NCBI RefSeq assembly: GCF_000233715.2
Contig: NC_021184.1
Span: 124,001-188,000 of the forward strand
Length of the DNA stretch: 64,000 nt
Source of the DNA: Desulfoscipio gibsoniae DSM 7213
GTDB taxonomy: Bacteria > Bacillota > Desulfotomaculia > Desulfotomaculales > Desulfallaceae
Direction: 5' to 3'
The notes below the pieces were generated by a model. That model was given only the letters and a program-made list of their open reading frames with translations, did not search any database and had not been told where the DNA came from. The position numbers were made by a program, and so were the translations under genes. Shown piece by piece: positions 21,427 to 35,096 of the stretch (position 1 is its first letter; each line of letters begins with the position of its first letter).

Positions 21427-21551
21427 ATTTAAAATAATTATCAGTTATATATGATGATTGCTTTCCAAGCTACCTAAGCAGTACTTTTTTTTGCAATAGC
21501 CCGGTAGTATAATTAGGTAGCAGTAAAGTTCAGCCAAAATAAAATACAGGA

Positions 21552-21637
21552 AGTCATTTGGGGTGCCGAAAAAGGCTGAGAGGCGAGTGCCAACCCATTG
21601 AACCTGCTCTGGGTAATACCAGCGAAGGGAAATGCAC
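21552..21637 (+). ncRNA. TPP riboswitch (THI box) aptamer upstream of thiD
   Basis: The conserved THI-box blocks are all present: GGGGTGCC, GGCTGAGAG, and ACCCATTGAACCTG continuing into CTGGGTAATACCAGCGAAGGGAA. The closing helix pairs CATTT with AAATG. It lies about 95 bases upstream of thiD and is expected to repress it when thiamin pyrophosphate is present. Confidence 0.97.
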
Positions 21638-21649
21638 TGAGTTATTTGT

Positions 21650-29793: not shown

Positions 29794-30295
29794 ATTGTCA
29801 ACCTCCCTAGTTGGTGTATGATTTTATTAACTTTCATAATGTCCCTCCGCATAGGCAATTATCGAGTTCAATATTACCACCTGCTTCTGTTCCACCTATT
29901 GCACCCCCTTTTAAATAGCCATTTGCCTAAAAGCTATTCGTACTAAGAAAAGAAAAACCCAGCCTCCCTACTTTATATATCGAAATATAATAAAAAGCAG
30001 GACATTAGGGTTTTCCTTATTTAAGAGGTTGTAAATCCTTATTTATAATATGGAATATAAACTAATCAAGGTAATTTATTGGTATGAACCATAACTGTTA
30101 TGAAAAGGGGTTCCGGTATATTGGTATTTTATTACTTATAATAAAAAAATGCAGGATTTTGAAACCTGTTATCGAAAATTAAAATAAACCTTATATTTTT
30201 GACTTATCAGAACCAATTCTGCTGTTCTTCTGCGCCTTTTAGAAAAGTCGTATATCTATTCTGGATGTATAGATAGTTAGTTAGCTTAAGCTTCA

Positions 30296-30321
30296 GTTCA
30301 GATAAGTCCACTTATCTGAAC
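30296..30321. repeat. 26-bp palindrome GTTCAGATAAGT-CC-ACTTATCTGAAC
   Basis: Twelve-bp perfect arms with a CC centre in the long intergenic region between the first two chemoreceptor genes. A decayed copy (left arm and half of the right arm) lies at 32584-32603, next to the tyrosine recombinase gene. Otherwise 29794-30463 holds only A+T-rich sequence and a terminator. Confidence 0.8.
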
Positions 30322-30337
30322 ATTTATCCCCTGAAAA

Positions 30338-30398
30338 CAAAAGCAATAGGAACGTACCTATTATCTAATGGATAGGCACGTCCTTATTGCTTTTTAGT
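30338..30398. terminator. Bidirectional terminator-like hairpin after the second chemoreceptor
   Basis: GCAATAGGAACGTACCTAT pairs imperfectly with ATAGGCACGTCCTTATTGC, with a T-run on the + side and A-rich sequence on the other. It lies 3' of the minus-strand chemoreceptor gene. Confidence 0.65.
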
Positions 30399-30463
30399 AA
30401 CATTCTTTTTTAAAAAAGCTGTCTGAAGTACTGAGATTTCAAACTTATTTACACTAAGTTTTG

Positions 30464-32086
30464 CTACTTTTTATTAAGGTCAACACCTGTTTTTTGCGAT
30501 TTATCTACATTGAACTTATTTACAAGATCATTTAATTCAATAGATAACCTGGATAACGAATCAGCAGATGCTGAAACTTCCTCCATTGTTGCAGTTTGTT
30601 CTTCCGTAGAGGCCGCAACATTTTGAACACCGGCTGACATTTGTTCTGTTGCAGATGCCACTTCCTGGATTTGCGAAGTTAGTTCTTGGACGGTATTTAT
30701 AATACCTTTAAAATTATTACCAACTTCTCCAACTATATCCGTACCGGCGATTACCTCTTTTCCCCCTTCCGCCATTACGCCTACAGCTTTCTGAGATTCA
30801 TTCTGGATAGCATTAACTAGTTTGTATATTTCTTTTGCTGCGCTGGCTGATTGTTCGGCCAGCTTTCTAACTTCTTCTGCAACCACTGCAAATCCTCTCC
30901 CATGTTCCCCAGCCCGGGCGGCTTCTATTGCTGCGTTAAGTGCTAATAAATTAGTTTGATCTGCAATGTTGGTAATCAGTTCAACAATTTGGTTTATTTC
31001 CTGGGATTTTTGGTTAAGTCCATCAATTGCTTTAGAAACATCGTTAGCGGTGTTTGATATACTCTGCATTTGCTTCGTAACTTTTTCTATGCCTTTGTTT
31101 CCTTCAGTGGCATGCTCTGTTGCTGTTTCCGAAGCAGTGGCTATCTCTTGTATATTAGAGGTAATCTGTTCTACGGAAGAAGAAATCTCGGTCATAGTGG
31201 CCGATGTTTCATTAGCCGAAGCAGCAGTTTGTTGTGCGCTTGAACTTAGCTGTTGAGAAGAAGCGGCAACAGTATTTGACTTTTCTTTAATTTCAATAAC
31301 CACCTCACGTAGATGCGAAATCATTGTTTTAAAGGCTGCAGAAAGGATTCCTATCTCGTCTTTAGACCCTGTATAAATATCTACTGTTAAATCACCTGAA
31401 GCTGCTGTTTGTGCAGCGTTTACCAATTCACCAACCGGTTTCGTTACGCTTCGTGCAATAGCCAAAGCAATTATTAGACCTAATAATAAACCTATAACTC
31501 CTGCTGAATACATTATTAAACTCGCCAAACGATAACTTTCTTGCGCTTGCTCATATCGCATCCGGGTACGCTCACCCGCATATTCATTAAGCTCACTTAA
31601 AGTGTTCCTCCATTCAGTAACCTTGGGAATGGATTCTTCAAATAGAAGTGTTAGTACTTCTTCTCTTTTATCGGCCATTGCCAAATTAGTAATATTATCA
31701 TTGACATTTCTGGATGTTTCTTTCAGCTGTTTGGTTCTTTCAAAAATTTCTCTTCCTTCATCTGAATTCACCAGTCCTTCAAAGCGAGCTTCGGCTTCGT
31801 TATATTGTTGCCGGGCCTCTTCAATTTTTTCCTTCTCTCTTTGTTTTGATTGAGGGTCCTCTAATAAAACAATGGTTGGCATTACTCTAGTAACAATATG
31901 TACAGCATCAAGCATTTCATTTGCTGCATTTTGTTGCTCTATATTAACTTTAACAATACGATTGAGTTTGTCGTCGATCTGCTTCATCTCAGCAATACTG
32001 GTAATTATTATTGCAATCATTAATAACAGAATAATACCAAAGCCAAGTGCCAACCTTAGTCCGAGTTTCATATTCCCGAATCTCAT
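30464..32086 (-). CDS. Methyl-accepting chemotaxis protein
   Basis: The start is ATG at 32086 ([12 protein letters not shown]) behind AGGGGAGG; the longer frame to 32158 lacks such a site. 540 residues: helix 1 (about 10-32), helical external sensor (4HB type, to about 185), helix 2 (about 187-210), HAMP, and signalling domain with tip [34 protein letters not shown]. The tip region is nearly the same as in the other two receptors, the sensor part is not. Confidence 0.93.
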
Positions 32087-32308
32087 AATTAGCCTCCCCT
32101 TAATTATGATCCTTAAGTACTTCTTGTAGGTTAAACAGTAACACCATCCTATTATCATATTGTGTGTTAAAAACGTTCATTATTGCATAACTTTTCGACT
32201 ATATACCGGGATCTTAGAGTCTTTTAAGCCAACGGTTTGCCGTTACCATCTCCAATGTTCATGATGATGTGGTATAGTAGTAGAAATTTCCCCAAAATAA
32301 CTATACCT

Positions 32309-32533
32309 TTAACAATCGTCACGCTCTATTGGGGGTGTTTTTTTATTAAAGTATTCTTCCTGAATAAGCGGTCCGGCCTTGTTTAATACAACTAACGGGA
32401 TATTGATTTTATCGATATCATGTAGTCCTGAAGTAATAAGATTGTCATTTGCAGGAAAAAATTTATAGGCCGGTTTGCTAACATTTTCATAATGTTGGAG
32501 TAATTTTTTTAAAACAGAAGTTTTTGTTTCCAT
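32309..32533 (-). CDS. Small hypothetical protein
   Basis: 74 residues from an ATG behind AGAGGTA. The sequence METKTSVLKKLLQHYENVSKPAYKF ends in a Lys/Pro/Asp-rich tail. No family recognised. It lies between a chemoreceptor and the recombinase, both orientations diverging from it. Confidence 0.5.
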   Translation of the reverse strand: METKTSVLKKLLQHYENVSKPAYKFFPANDNLITSGLHDIDKINIPLVVLNKAGPLIQEEYFNKKTPPIERDDC

Positions 32534-32583
32534 TCTTACCTCTCACAGTAAAAAGAAATTGATGAATTTCTATCTTCCCTAAT

Positions 32584-32603
32584 GTTCAGATAAGTGGACT
32601 TAT
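32584..32603. repeat. Decayed second copy of the GTTCAGATAAGT palindrome
   Basis: GTTCAGATAAGT-GG-ACTTAT at 32584-32603 repeats the left arm and half of the right arm of the palindrome at 30296-30321; the last six bases differ. It is 68 bases before the recombinase start. Confidence 0.7.
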
Positions 32604-32670
32604 TCGTATCTAGATTGATATAATGAATAACATAACTTAAATAAACAGACATAAAGGGAGTGTTTACTAC

Positions 32671-33588
32671 TTGATCAAGGACGAGGGGAACGAAATATTT
32701 AGTTCTGATAAGTTGGAACTTCTAATCAATAAATTTGAAACTTACTTAAAAGCAACAGACCGTGGCAGTTCTGTTCGTTCCTACGTTGGAGATGTTAATA
32801 GATTTATAAAATGGAGTATTAGTAAATACGATGTTTCTTTGGTTAACGCCACATCACCATTGGATTTAGTGGAATATCGTACTTTTATGCAGGAAAGCGG
32901 AGGACATAAAGGTAATGGCGTAGCGCCAACAACTGTAAACAGAGCCATTATTAGTTTAAAAATTTTTTTTTCATGGCTAAAAAAGGAAGGGTATATTAAA
33001 GATAATCCATCCGAAGATATTAAAATGGTGGCTATTGCAAGTACACCTGTCCCACGTTGGCTCACAAGACCTCAACAAGCTAGGCTTATAAGGGCTGTTC
33101 GCCAATCTGGTAGTAAGCGGGACGAAGCCATCACAAGCTTGATGCTGCATGCCGGGCTGCGGGTAAGCGAACTTTGTTCTCTAAGAAGAAGTGATCTATA
33201 TATATCGGCTAGATGTGGTAAGGTCGCTGTAACCGGTAAGGGGAATAAATATAGGGAGGTTCCTCTAAACAGTACAATTAGAAAGATACTATCGTGTTGG
33301 TTGGCCGAAAATCCTACTGGACCGCTATTTCCTAACAAATACGGGAAAAGCATTTCAACCAGGGGAGTTCTAAAGTTGGTGGCTAGATATGCGTATATTG
33401 CCAAACTTGAAAAGGTAACTCCGCATACTTTAAGACACACCTTTTGTAAAAACGCGATCGACATGGGTATCCCCATAGATCAGGTAGCAGCAATGGCGGG
33501 GCATAGCTCCCTGGATATTACCAAAAGATATACAGCTCCCTCTCAAGATGATCTACAAAAGGCCGTAGAGCGATTATCTTGGGAGTAG
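32671..33588 (+). CDS. Tyrosine recombinase (XerC/D-like integrase)
   Basis: TTG 32671 after AAGGGAGTG. 305 residues with an N-terminal SAM-like core-binding domain and a catalytic domain: Arg in LMLHAGLRVSEL (about 153), Lys in VTGKGNKYREVPL, HTLRHTFCKNAI, MAGHSSLDI, and nucleophile Tyr in TKRYTAPS near 288. All six catalytic positions are present, so it may be active. It could serve a local mobile element; nearby palindromes are candidate sites. Confidence 0.92.
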   Translation: MIKDEGNEIFSSDKLELLINKFETYLKATDRGSSVRSYVGDVNRFIKWSISKYDVSLVNATSPLDLVEYRTFMQESGGHKGNGVAPTTVNRAIISLKIFFSWLKKEGYIKDNPSEDIKMVAIASTPVPRWLTRPQQARLIRAVRQSGSKRDEAITSLMLHAGLRVSELCSLRRSDLYISARCGKVAVTGKGNKYREVPLNSTIRKILSCWLAENPTGPLFPNKYGKSISTRGVLKLVARYAYIAKLEKVTPHTLRHTFCKNAIDMGIPIDQVAAMAGHSSLDITKRYTAPSQDDLQKAVERLSWE

Positions 33589-34065
33589 ATATACGCAGGC
33601 ATGTTGATAAAACTAAAGTTTGGCACCTGGAATTTAAAGACGATAAATCGGTGACTGCCAAGTTTAACCGGATGAGTCACGGTTTTATTTGGTCGAAGTT
33701 TTTAGCTATGACGCGGCGCCGGGCTTTAAGAAAAGGTGTGCCATTGGTTAAAATAAAACCGGCTTTTACATCAGTTATCGGAATCTTAAAATATCAGGTT
33801 CAATACGGTCTTTCCAACCACGAAGCGGCAGGCTATGTAATTAGCCCGGCGGGGATAGGATGTAACCATGAAAAATTACCCGGCCACTGGTAAAGCAGTT
33901 TATCAAAAAGAAAAAGAAAGACGGTTTTTCTAAGCTAACCAACTGGAAACAGTGGAGCTTCATAAAAAAAGCGGTGGTTGCCGCAATAAAAAAACATACC
34001 AAGAAGGAGGTGCAAAGCCTGGTCTCTTGGCAGCATTACAGAAAACAACTTTTAGTTTCGGGTTA
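33579..34065 (+). pseudogene. TnpB-like (IS605 OrfB-type) gene remnant, C-terminal
   Basis: The frame from 33579 carries SKFLAMTRRRALRKGVPLVKIKPAFTSVIGILKYQ and YGLSNHEAAGYVI, which is the segment R..R.GV.. I.V.PA.TS.IG..KY...YGLS.H.AAA.VI typical of TnpB-related proteins. It stops at 33893; the C-terminus continues in another frame (LTNWKQWSFIKKAVVAAIKK ... SWQHYRKQLLVSG) to TAA near 34065, so there is at least one frameshift. Everything upstream of this segment, including the first catalytic Asp region, is missing. It begins inside the recombinase stop region, suggesting one insertion event next to the other. Confidence 0.75.
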
Positions 34066-34079
34066 ACACCTTGACATAA

Positions 34080-34335
34080 ATTTCGCGCTAAAGTATGGCA
34101 CGGTACACGTAGTGAAAGGCTGTGCTGTACAGTTAACAACTAGGCGGTGGGTAACACCCTCTTTCGGGCAGCACGTTAGCCTTCAAGGTTAGCGGCGGGT
34201 TACTGTAAGATTTACTCGAAATACAGGCGAAAGCCTGTAGCTAAGCAGTTGAATCCTGTGATACTGCCGCCCGTTTACAACCCTTGTGGTTGCTGGCAAC
34301 CCTTGAGGTTGTAGTCGAACGGGTGAGGAACCTAT
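34080..34335 (+). ncRNA. Strongly structured region after the TnpB remnant; candidate omega-RNA relic
   Basis: Several perfect hairpins occur in order: TACAGGC-GAAA-GCCTGTA (34222-34239), GCAGT...ACTGC (34245-34267), an outer CCCGTT...AACGGG stem (34270-34323) enclosing two near-identical hairpins CAACC-CTTGT-GGTTG (34278-34292) and CAACC-CTTGA-GGTTG (34297-34311). Such an RNA at the 3' end of a TnpB-type gene fits the guide RNA of IS200/IS605 elements, but no experimental or database support is available here. It could instead be a leader of the downstream reductase gene. Confidence 0.5.
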
Positions 34336-34373
34336 TGTAGGTTTTGATAGGTTTCAGAAACCAGGGTATAGCA

Positions 34374-35096
34374 TTGAACAAGGCTATTTTTAAACAGAGT
34401 AATGGAATGTACGCTGTCAACATAGTATCGGCCTGTGGCGTATTTACCCCGGAGCAGTTTGCCGGCTTGGGACAAGCTGCTCTGGAATGCAGCGTATTCA
34501 GGTTGAAGTTGACCACCAGGCAAACCGTGGTAGCAGTGCTAAACGAGGAAGATCTGGCCAAGCTGGAAGCCCGTCTTTCCGCGCTTGGCTTGTCCGTTTC
34601 GCCTTATGGCGGGACCGTTCGAGCCGTGAAAGCCTGTGCCGGAAATACTGCACTATGTCAGCGAGCTTTGGGAGATGCCCTGGATCTTGGCATTGTTATG
34701 CAAGAAAAATATCTGGGGCGGGAATTAAATAAGGACGTAAAAATTGCGGTGGCCGGTTGCTCACGCGGATGTACCGATCCGTTATGCGCGGACTTTGGGG
34801 TTATTGCGCGGGGTCGGGATTCTTTCGATGTATATATTGGTGGTCGCGGCAGTACCAGGAAGCCGCTGCATGGCCAATTGCTTGCGGAGGATTTGACCGG
34901 CGACGAGGTATGCAAACTGTTTGAACATGTAATAGATAAATACTCCAAACTGGCCCAGCCCAAGGAACGACTGGCCTCCACCGTGGCCAGGGTGGGGTTG
35001 GGGGAGTTTATCCCGCCCCAAGGGATGTTTGCACCGAAGCAGGAACAGTCGGATAATGAATTTTTAGCATTTATATCCGGGAAAGAGGAGGCGTAA
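34374..35096 (+). CDS. Nitrite/sulfite reductase-like protein (siroheme and 4Fe-4S half-domain)
   Basis: TTG 34374, 7 bases after CCAGGG, gives MNKAIFKQSNGMYAVNIVS. The first 80 residues are a ferredoxin-like half-domain of the NiR/SiR family (LKLTTRQTVVAVLNEEDLAKLEARLSALG); the rest is the 4Fe-4S/siroheme segment with KACAGNTALC (Cys x6 Cys) and AGCSRGCTDPLC (Cys x3 Cys). At 240 residues it is a single-repeat, short stand-alone form, unlike the 500-600 residue assimilatory enzymes. Electron donor and substrate are unknown; it is coupled to the next gene (2-base gap). Confidence 0.85.
   Translation: MNKAIFKQSNGMYAVNIVSACGVFTPEQFAGLGQAALECSVFRLKLTTRQTVVAVLNEEDLAKLEARLSALGLSVSPYGGTVRAVKACAGNTALCQRALGDALDLGIVMQEKYLGRELNKDVKIAVAGCSRGCTDPLCADFGVIARGRDSFDVYIGGRGSTRKPLHGQLLAEDLTGDEVCKLFEHVIDKYSKLAQPKERLASTVARVGLGEFIPPQGMFAPKQEQSDNEFLAFISGKEEA

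What the first reader, a model, noticed from the sequence alone, without database searches (positions are those of the whole stretch)
33579..34335. Decayed TnpB gene followed by a possible omega-RNA relic
The TnpB-like C-terminus has lost its reading frame, yet the 250 bases after it keep several perfect hairpins, including twin CAACC/GGTTG hairpins inside a CCCGTT/AACGGG stem and a GAAA-capped stem. TnpB elements encode a guide RNA in this place. The RNA ends shortly before the siroheme reductase start, so it may have been kept as a leader for that gene, or exapted as a stand-alone RNA.
Basis: inference. Interest (0 to 1): 0.55.

Follow-up and report, generated by a model that had tools for sequence, protein, structure and literature searches.

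The report
Guide-RNA transposon relic in ribosome-binding site
A broken jumping gene has left behind its guide RNA exactly in the ribosome-binding site of a sulfite/nitrite-reductase-like gene, and its relatives across many genomes land in the same kind of site, which suggests a mobile element that homes in on the signals where genes start being translated.

Summary
Window 33625-34365 is the right-hand remnant of an IS607-family transposon: a frameshifted TnpB C-terminus, about 300 nt of structured RNA and the right end. An intact 94% copy with TnpA and TnpB lies in the same genome. The RNA matches no Rfam family, but it follows tnpB in every close relative read and its stems covary strongly. 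The omega-RNA reading is therefore well supported. The twin CAACC/GGTTG hairpins are a local expansion.

Exaptation as a leader is not supported. The related genome G022 holds the empty site, TGTAAGGAGG|GTATAGCATTG: the element went into the reductase's Shine-Dalgarno sequence.

This is general. GGAGG precedes the left end in 26 of 28 non-redundant copies, and a start codon follows the right end by 4-12 nt in 63 of 86. RAGATH-18 elements show a similar pattern, 10 of 18; their TnpBs have a published AGGAG TAM (PMC11061315). Mobile 470-nt solo guide-RNA elements without tnpA or tnpB also occur. I found no report of Shine-Dalgarno targeting in ten searches of the held library.

The parts
33625..34065 (+). 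tnpB relic: C-terminal third of TnpB (from about residue 341 of the intact copy), three single-base indels, frame lost
   Evidence: 94% DNA match to intact tnpB in L006
34085..34365 (+). omega/re RNA scaffold of the IS607-family element (about 280 nt up to the element's right end; 5' end not mapped)
   Evidence: conserved after tnpB in relatives, alignments A2/A3, covariation
34146..34159 (+). conserved hairpin GGTGGGTAACACCC (helix 2)
34223..34238 (+). GAAA-capped stem ACAGGC-GAAA-GCCTGT (helix 4), best covariation: 6 of 7 pairs with double changes
34244..34268 (+). most conserved stretch AGCAGTTGAATCCTGTGATACTGCC (helix 5), basis of the search pattern
34270..34323 (+). terminal stem CCCGTT/AACGGG with twin CAACC/GGTTG hairpins; the twin hairpins are a local expansion of its loop
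34350..34365 (+). right end of the element, GGTTTCAGAAACCAGG; its last GG is the presumed IS607 exchange dinucleotide
   Evidence: end of identity with L006 and L007; right end found by an exact-form regex at 84 of 95 sites
34366..34385 (+). guide-position sequence GTATAGCATTGAACAAGGCT, identical to the empty target in G022, where TGTAAGGAGG precedes it
34374..35096 (+). host gene: small siroheme/[4Fe-4S] nitrite/sulfite-reductase-domain protein, TTG start 8 nt after the right end
   Evidence: Pfam NIR_SIR and NIR_SIR_ferr; 38 of 113 class genomes have a homologue; same TTG start in G022
32671..33588 (+). tyrosine recombinase gene (XerC/D-like) abutting the truncated left side of the relic; not part of the IS607 element
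   Evidence: Pfam PF00589; absent from the G022 locus

Best explanation
It is the right-hand remnant of an IS607-family transposon (serine recombinase TnpA plus TnpB) that inserted into the Shine-Dalgarno sequence of a siroheme-reductase gene. A later rearrangement removed the left end, tnpA and two thirds of tnpB. The structured RNA is the TnpB guide-RNA scaffold, and the bases after the right end (34366 on) are the guide. SHOWN here: homology to intact elements in the same genome, RNA conservation with covariation, exact right end, empty site in a sister genome, and preferential insertion of relatives at GGAGG just before start codons. INFERRED: that this TnpB uses a GGAGG/AGGAG TAM, as published for RAGATH-18 IS607 TnpBs, so that target choice is set jointly by TnpA's GG requirement and TnpB's TAM; that TnpB re-cuts empty sites so the element is kept or copied; that the right end's CCAGG leaves a weak Shine-Dalgarno, so insertions even before essential genes are tolerated; and that the relic RNA could still be loaded by TnpB from the intact copy.
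For: 94% DNA identity to the intact element L006 and 67% to L007. TnpA is IS607 by NCBIfam NF033518, 200 bits against a cutoff of 110. RNA between the tnpB stop and the right end in all 22 close relatives printed. Covariation 18 of 39 pairs, 0 of 500 shuffles, slid controls far lower. Empty site in G022: TGTAAGGAGG|GTATAGCATTGAACAAGGCTAT, against the window's AACCAGG|GTATAGCATTGAACAAGGCTAT. Second empty site with both flanks alike by eye: G015 for the L006 insertion. GGAGG upstream of 26 of 28 left ends against 1.3% in random positions; start codon of an ORF of at least 60 aa 4-12 nt after 63 of 86 right ends, 42 of 86 at +7/+8 against about 1.3% per position. Among all GGAGG sites in the window plus 47 of these loci only 103 of 571 precede a start codon (Fisher p 4e-24). 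RAGATH-18 elements 10 of 18 against 13.5%. Published TAM AGGAG for 18 of 22 RAGATH-18 strains (PMC11061315, passages read).
Against: TnpB membership by library is weak: guided_TnpB 58.5 bits, below its cutoff of 100; no Pfam hit at E 0.01 for P0001; no PDB hit by profile; a low-confidence fold, pLDDT 59.6. The canonical third RuvC acid was not identified: His-Glu/Gln stands there in the alignment (motif recalled). The TAM and the nuclease activity were not measured. 23 of 86 non-redundant right ends lack a qualifying start at 4-12 nt; some are real short genes or contig ends, others are not (L096, L105, L119, L156, L186). Two left ends (L175, L187) lack GGAGG. Ten right ends used were degenerate forms chosen by eye. 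RAGATH-18 right ends were also set by eye.
Confidence: 0.87

Rival explanations
1. Riboswitch or other native cis-regulatory leader of the siroheme-reductase gene.
For: Position just before the start codon; well-structured and covarying RNA.
Against: No Rfam match. Of 38 genomes with the reductase homologue, only the window's has the RNA beside it (lists). G022, 93% identical in protein, has a plain Shine-Dalgarno there. The same RNA stands before unrelated genes.
Confidence: 0.02
2. Domesticated transposon RNA: the remnant is retained by selection as a regulatory leader, or as a stand-alone guide RNA used in trans by TnpB from the intact copies to regulate or cut.
For: The RNA stems are intact; a 94% identical intact tnpB exists in the genome; its guide matches the sister genome's allele over at least 20 nt; solo guide-RNA elements persist before essential genes elsewhere.
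Against: RNA and dead tnpB have diverged similarly from L006 (5/281 against 16/440, p 0.18). Four informative orthologous solo pairs show the RNA no better conserved than both flanks. The guide's only match in the own genome is its own locus, which lacks the GGAGG.
Confidence: 0.08
3. The start-codon association is only survivorship: insertion is random at GG, and only copies in harmless intergenic sites remain.
For: IS607 TnpA in E. coli needs only (G)GG, with no further sequence preference (PMC6188088, passages). Intragenic insertions would be purged.
Against: The left flank is GGAGG in 26 of 28, not just GG. Many hits are directly before essential genes: pyrG, rpmB, rpmF, rpsR, gltX, purH. 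The distance peaks sharply at +7/+8. The enrichment exceeds the GGAGG baseline, 103 of 571. Purging may still add to the enrichment.
Confidence: 0.1

Closest known systems
RAGATH-18-associated IS607 TnpB systems (ISFba1; PMC11061315; Rfam RF03064)
   Same: IS607 TnpA plus TnpB, guide RNA downstream of tnpB ending at the right end, G-rich TAM (AGGAG in 18 of 22 strains in the paper); their right ends also precede start codons in 10 of 18 loci
   Different: TnpB about 390 aa against 484-487 aa here; the RNA here has no RAGATH-18 match even at E 10; the RE ends CCAGG here against GCAG(G) or AACGG there
Group B (IS607-type) IStrons (PMC4227781)
   Same: IS607-type ORFs, insertion after GG-ending sites (AGGG, TGGG, GAGG), 3' end in CGG, no target duplication
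   Different: They carry a group I intron and IStrons are mostly intragenic (118 of 202 sites in that paper, all IStrons); Rfam gave no group I intron in the window or in the L006-L009 loci
ISXfa1 and other IS607 TnpBs (PMC10711439)
   Same: IS607 TnpB with a reRNA running past the right end; the fixed right-flanking base belongs to the scaffold
   Different: Different TnpB lineage as far as I can tell (not compared here); no start-codon targeting in the passages read
PATE-type non-autonomous relatives of IS605 elements (recalled; paper not held)
   Same: Short element without genes, moved in trans
   Different: IS605 type; here LE, promoter-like stretch, 4-6-codon ORF, guide RNA and RE of IS607 type

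Membership tests
IS607-family transposon | Serine-recombinase TnpA with MerR-like N-terminal domain | tested here: met
   Intact copy L006: NF033518 200 bits (cutoff 110), PF00239 and PF00376. The window relic itself has lost tnpA.
IS607-family transposon | Exchange at a GG dinucleotide without target duplication | tested here: met
   Ends and empty sites share GG, no duplication; GG rule from PMC6188088
TnpB RNA-guided nuclease | Match to curated TnpB models | tested here: inconclusive
   TIGR01766 35.5 bits over its cutoff of 32; NF040570 58.5 under its cutoff of 100; no Pfam hit for P0001; Foldseek top hits Cas12f, ISFba1 TnpB at rank 15, from a low-confidence model
TnpB RNA-guided nuclease | RuvC D-E-D catalytic triad | tested here: inconclusive
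   D279 and E340 invariant in 10 homologues; third acid not identified (H406, then E/Q) (motif positions recalled)
TnpB RNA-guided nuclease | RNA-guided DNA cleavage | not testable with these tools
   needs biochemistry
TnpB omega/re RNA | Structured RNA overlapping or following the tnpB 3' end and ending at the right end | tested here: met
TnpB omega/re RNA | Variable guide beginning at the right end and matching the empty site beside a TAM | tested here: met
   Variable flanks after RE; guide equals the G022 empty site after AAGGAGG. The TAM is inferred and use as a guide is not shown.
RAGATH-18 RNA (RF03064) | Match to the covariance model | tested here: not met
   No hit at gathering or at E 10; 0 in G000
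Riboswitch/leader of the reductase | Conserved upstream of reductase orthologues | tested here: not met
   1 of 38
IStron | Group I intron in the element | tested here: not met
   No Rfam intron hit in the window or L006-L009

The most novel reading that the evidence does not exclude
A branch of IS607 transposons, together with the RAGATH-18 branch, has made the Shine-Dalgarno sequence its homing site. TnpB's TAM is the Shine-Dalgarno motif itself, so its guide always covers the spacer, start codon and first codons of a gene, and the right end supplies a substitute AGG. In this way the elements sit in the 5' leaders of genes, even essential ones, without killing the host. Solo 470-nt elements carrying a promoter-like stretch, a tiny ORF and the guide RNA spread in trans as mobile 5' leaders.
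Probability: 0.5. Interest if true: 0.78.

Novelty: new variant of a known kind. Interest (0 to 1): 0.6.

Why it matters
If right, a whole class of bacterial transposons with RNA-guided nucleases targets a universal functional signal, the ribosome-binding site, rather than a neutral sequence. That gives a reason for the G-rich TAM already measured for RAGATH-18 TnpBs. It would explain how such elements can sit before essential genes, and it would link transposition directly to changes in translation start regions. It also adds a guide-RNA class without an Rfam entry (its core pattern occurs in 29 of 113 genomes of the window's class) and a set of gene-less guide-RNA elements. All of this can be tested with ordinary TAM and translation-reporter assays.

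Tried and rejected
Rfam match for the RNA: none at gathering; at E up to 10 only AniS and isrA, both far below their cutoffs. Reductase leader or riboswitch: rejected by distribution. Retention by selection: compared RNA and dead tnpB against L006, and nine orthologous pairs of sites (one of them, L122/L130, is tnpB-linked, not solo). Five pairs were too similar to inform, and the four informative ones show no RNA excess over both flanks. Left-flank remnant of the empty site elsewhere in the window: only chance words; the left side is replaced by about 4.2 kb holding an MCP gene, a small ORF and a recombinase gene. Guide targets in the own genome: only its own locus. PDB relatives of the TnpB by profile: none. 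Structure prediction was low-confidence, so the fold hits are weak support only. Empty site for L185 in 10 related genomes: one distant match, not informative. Distant TnpB relatives L061-L064 have different RNAs and were not pursued. Genome contigs gave only 5 loci.

Rows dropped: 8 of 94 right ends as duplicates or for lack of flank; 2 of 30 left ends as duplicates; 65 of 95 loci had no left end at E 0.05 (cut contigs, truncation, divergence). Alignment A3 used 28 of 32 candidates; L148, L151, L155 and L181 were left out because their start was cut short by my regex.

Literature: ten library searches. Passages read: PMC11061315, PMC10711439, PMC6188088, PMC4227781, PMC9956272, PMC4148979. 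Other papers were seen as listings and abstract starts only. No mention of Shine-Dalgarno targeting by IS607 was found in these; subscription papers are largely missing, so this is not proof of absence.

Full report
WHAT IS THERE. The window lies in a single-contig genome of 4,855,529 bp, the size given for Desulfotomaculum gibsoniae Groll in PMC4148979 (passages). Between a tyrosine recombinase gene (32671-33588) and a small siroheme/[4Fe-4S] reductase gene (34374-35096) lies DNA that matches four other places in the genome. L006 is a complete IS607-family element: a 217-aa serine recombinase TnpA (NF033518, 200 bits, cutoff 110), a 487-aa TnpB, then about 300 bases and a right end. L007 is a second complete copy, 67% alike at DNA level over the matched part. 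Two further places match only the RNA part. The window copy matches L006 at 94% from 33625 to 34365 and stops exactly at ...GGTTTCAGAAACCAGG. It starts inside tnpB, so the left end, tnpA and about two thirds of tnpB are gone. Three single-base indels have broken the rest of the frame.

THE RNA. In the 22 close relatives printed the same RNA stands between the tnpB stop and a right end that ends in CCAGG. An alignment of 28 non-redundant copies gives a consensus with 39 pairs. 97.5% of cells pair, 18 pairs have changes on both sides, and 0 of 500 shuffles reach any of the five measures; sliding the partners by 1 to 3 columns collapses the signal. The twin CAACC/GGTTG hairpins are not part of the core: L006 has one, L007 has a different one, and the other aligned relatives have a short TTAGTCG-like loop. 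No Rfam family matches, including RAGATH-18, the one IS607-linked family I know of there.

WHY IT SITS BEFORE THE REDUCTASE. Of 113 genomes of the class, 38 have a homologue of the reductase. Comparing the coordinates, only the window's genome has the RNA next to it. In G022, a genome of the same genus with a 93% identical protein, the site is empty: TGTAAGGAGG|GTATAGCATTGAACAAGGCTAT. The window reads AGAAACCAGG|GTATAGCATTGAACAAGGCTAT. The element therefore went into the reductase's Shine-Dalgarno sequence, and its own last bases, CCAGG, now stand 8 nt before the TTG start. The L006 insertion has an empty counterpart in G015 in which both flanks are alike by eye: AAAGGAGG|TGTAAAGC followed by the start codon.

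IT IS A RULE. The pattern AGTTGAATCCTGTGANNCTGCC (up to 2 mismatches) occurs at 95 places in 29 of 113 genomes, while the reversed control gives 1. All 95 were fetched. 84 have a right end found by an exact-form regex and 10 a degenerate one that I set by eye; one has none. After removing 8 duplicates or copies without flank, 63 of 86 right ends are followed at 4-12 nt by a start codon of an ORF of at least 60 aa (or open to the contig end) in the same direction. 42 of 86 are at exactly +7 or +8, against about 1.3% per position at random positions of the same loci. A left-end profile built without flanking bases gave 28 non-redundant left ends at E 0.05 or better, and 26 of them are preceded within 14 nt by GGAGG, against 1.3% at random. 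I had seen GGAGG in some of these loci before building the profile. Of all GGAGG sites in the window plus 47 of these loci, only 103 of 571 stand before a start codon, so the element is found at translation starts more often than the motif alone predicts (Fisher p 4e-24); loss of harmful insertions may add to this. Genes hit include pyrG, rpmB, rpmF, rpsR, gltX and purH (NCBIfam over cutoff). In the wider phylum sample 9 of 398 genomes have the pattern (up to 1 mismatch); all 8 sites new to the earlier set show a start codon 4-12 nt after the right end by eye, ORF lengths not computed.

RELATION TO KNOWN SYSTEMS. RAGATH-18 IS607 TnpBs were shown to need an AGGAG TAM in 18 of 22 strains and GAGGG in 4 (PMC11061315, passages). 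That text has no occurrence of 'Shine' or 'start codon'. I tested 18 RAGATH-18 loci from 5 of 149 genomes: 10 of 18 right ends are followed by a start codon at 3-12 nt, against 13.5% at random (right ends set by eye). IS607 TnpA alone needs only (G)GG in E. coli (PMC6188088), and IS607-type IStrons insert after AGGG, TGGG or GAGG (PMC4227781). The most economical reading is that TnpA supplies the GG requirement and TnpB's TAM the rest of GGAGG. This is inference: the TAM of this TnpB was not measured. TnpB membership by library is only partly met (TIGR01766 above, NF040570 below cutoff). The third catalytic acid was not identified, and the predicted model is of low confidence, though its best fold matches are Cas12f and, at rank 15, ISFba1 TnpB.

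SOLO GUIDE-RNA ELEMENTS. Of the 95 sites, 18 carry a distinct 5' domain of the RNA (AAAGACAC) and none of these has tnpB beside it. Of 41 with the usual 5' domain (GTACAC), 37 have tnpB or a remnant. 23 are unclassified and 13 cut by contig ends. In genome G095 three solo elements of 470 nt are 98.7-99.1% identical at unrelated sites, so they have moved recently although they encode neither TnpA nor TnpB. A short ORF of 4 to 6 codons after AGGAGG was found in 15 of 22 scanned, several with a TTGACA-type promoter-like stretch. Whether they lend guides to TnpB is not known.

IS THE WINDOW COPY KEPT BY SELECTION? There is no sign of it. Against L006 the RNA has 5 substitutions in 281 bases and the dead tnpB 16 in 440 (p 0.18), and both have 3 indel events. 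In four informative pairs of orthologous solo copies the RNA was never better kept than both flanks. The guide sequence occurs in the own genome only at its own locus, which lacks GGAGG, and in G022 at the empty site. If TnpB from L006 still loads this RNA, the expected target is an empty allele like that of G022.

VERDICT. What makes the case more than an ordinary relic is the site rule it exposes: insertion into Shine-Dalgarno sequences in two IS607 branches, and mobile solo guide-RNA elements. I found no account of this in ten searches of the held library, which lacks most subscription papers.

Noticed in passing
L157, L158, L159 (genome G095): Three 470-nt gene-less elements (LE, promoter-like stretch, 4-codon ORF, guide RNA, RE), 98.7-99.1% identical at unrelated sites; one sits before ribosomal protein L32.
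   Followed up: yes
L170/L176, L172/L177, L131, L175, L182: The same RNA and right end stand directly before essential genes: pyrG, rpmB, rpsR, gltX, purH.
   Followed up: partly
L164 and L168 (genomes G096, G098): Degenerate right ends read AGAAACGAGG instead of AGAAACCAGG before the same gene, a change that would strengthen the Shine-Dalgarno (GAGG).
   Followed up: no
L011/L052, L013, L183: About 80-100-nt inserts in the RNA's variable loop with inverted repeats beginning CCCAGCACTCAA or CCCGGCACTCAA, MITE-like, extending the stem rather than breaking it.
   Followed up: no
G033 (L106-L118): Thirteen copies with RNA pairwise identity 0.92-1.00 (median 0.975): a recent burst of the element in a 4,545,624-bp genome.
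   Followed up: partly
window 30108-34363: Relative to G022 the interval between a CheW-like gene and the reductase has gained about 4.2 kb: a second MCP gene (30464-32158), a 74-aa ORF, a XerC/D-like recombinase and the IS607 relic.
   Followed up: partly
TnpB alignment A4, columns around 406-407: These TnpBs carry H-E/Q-A/S-A where a RuvC-III Asp is expected (recalled), so the active site may be rearranged.
   Followed up: no
window 21549-21647: TPP riboswitch (RF00059, 68.4 bits), the only Rfam hit in the window.
   Followed up: no
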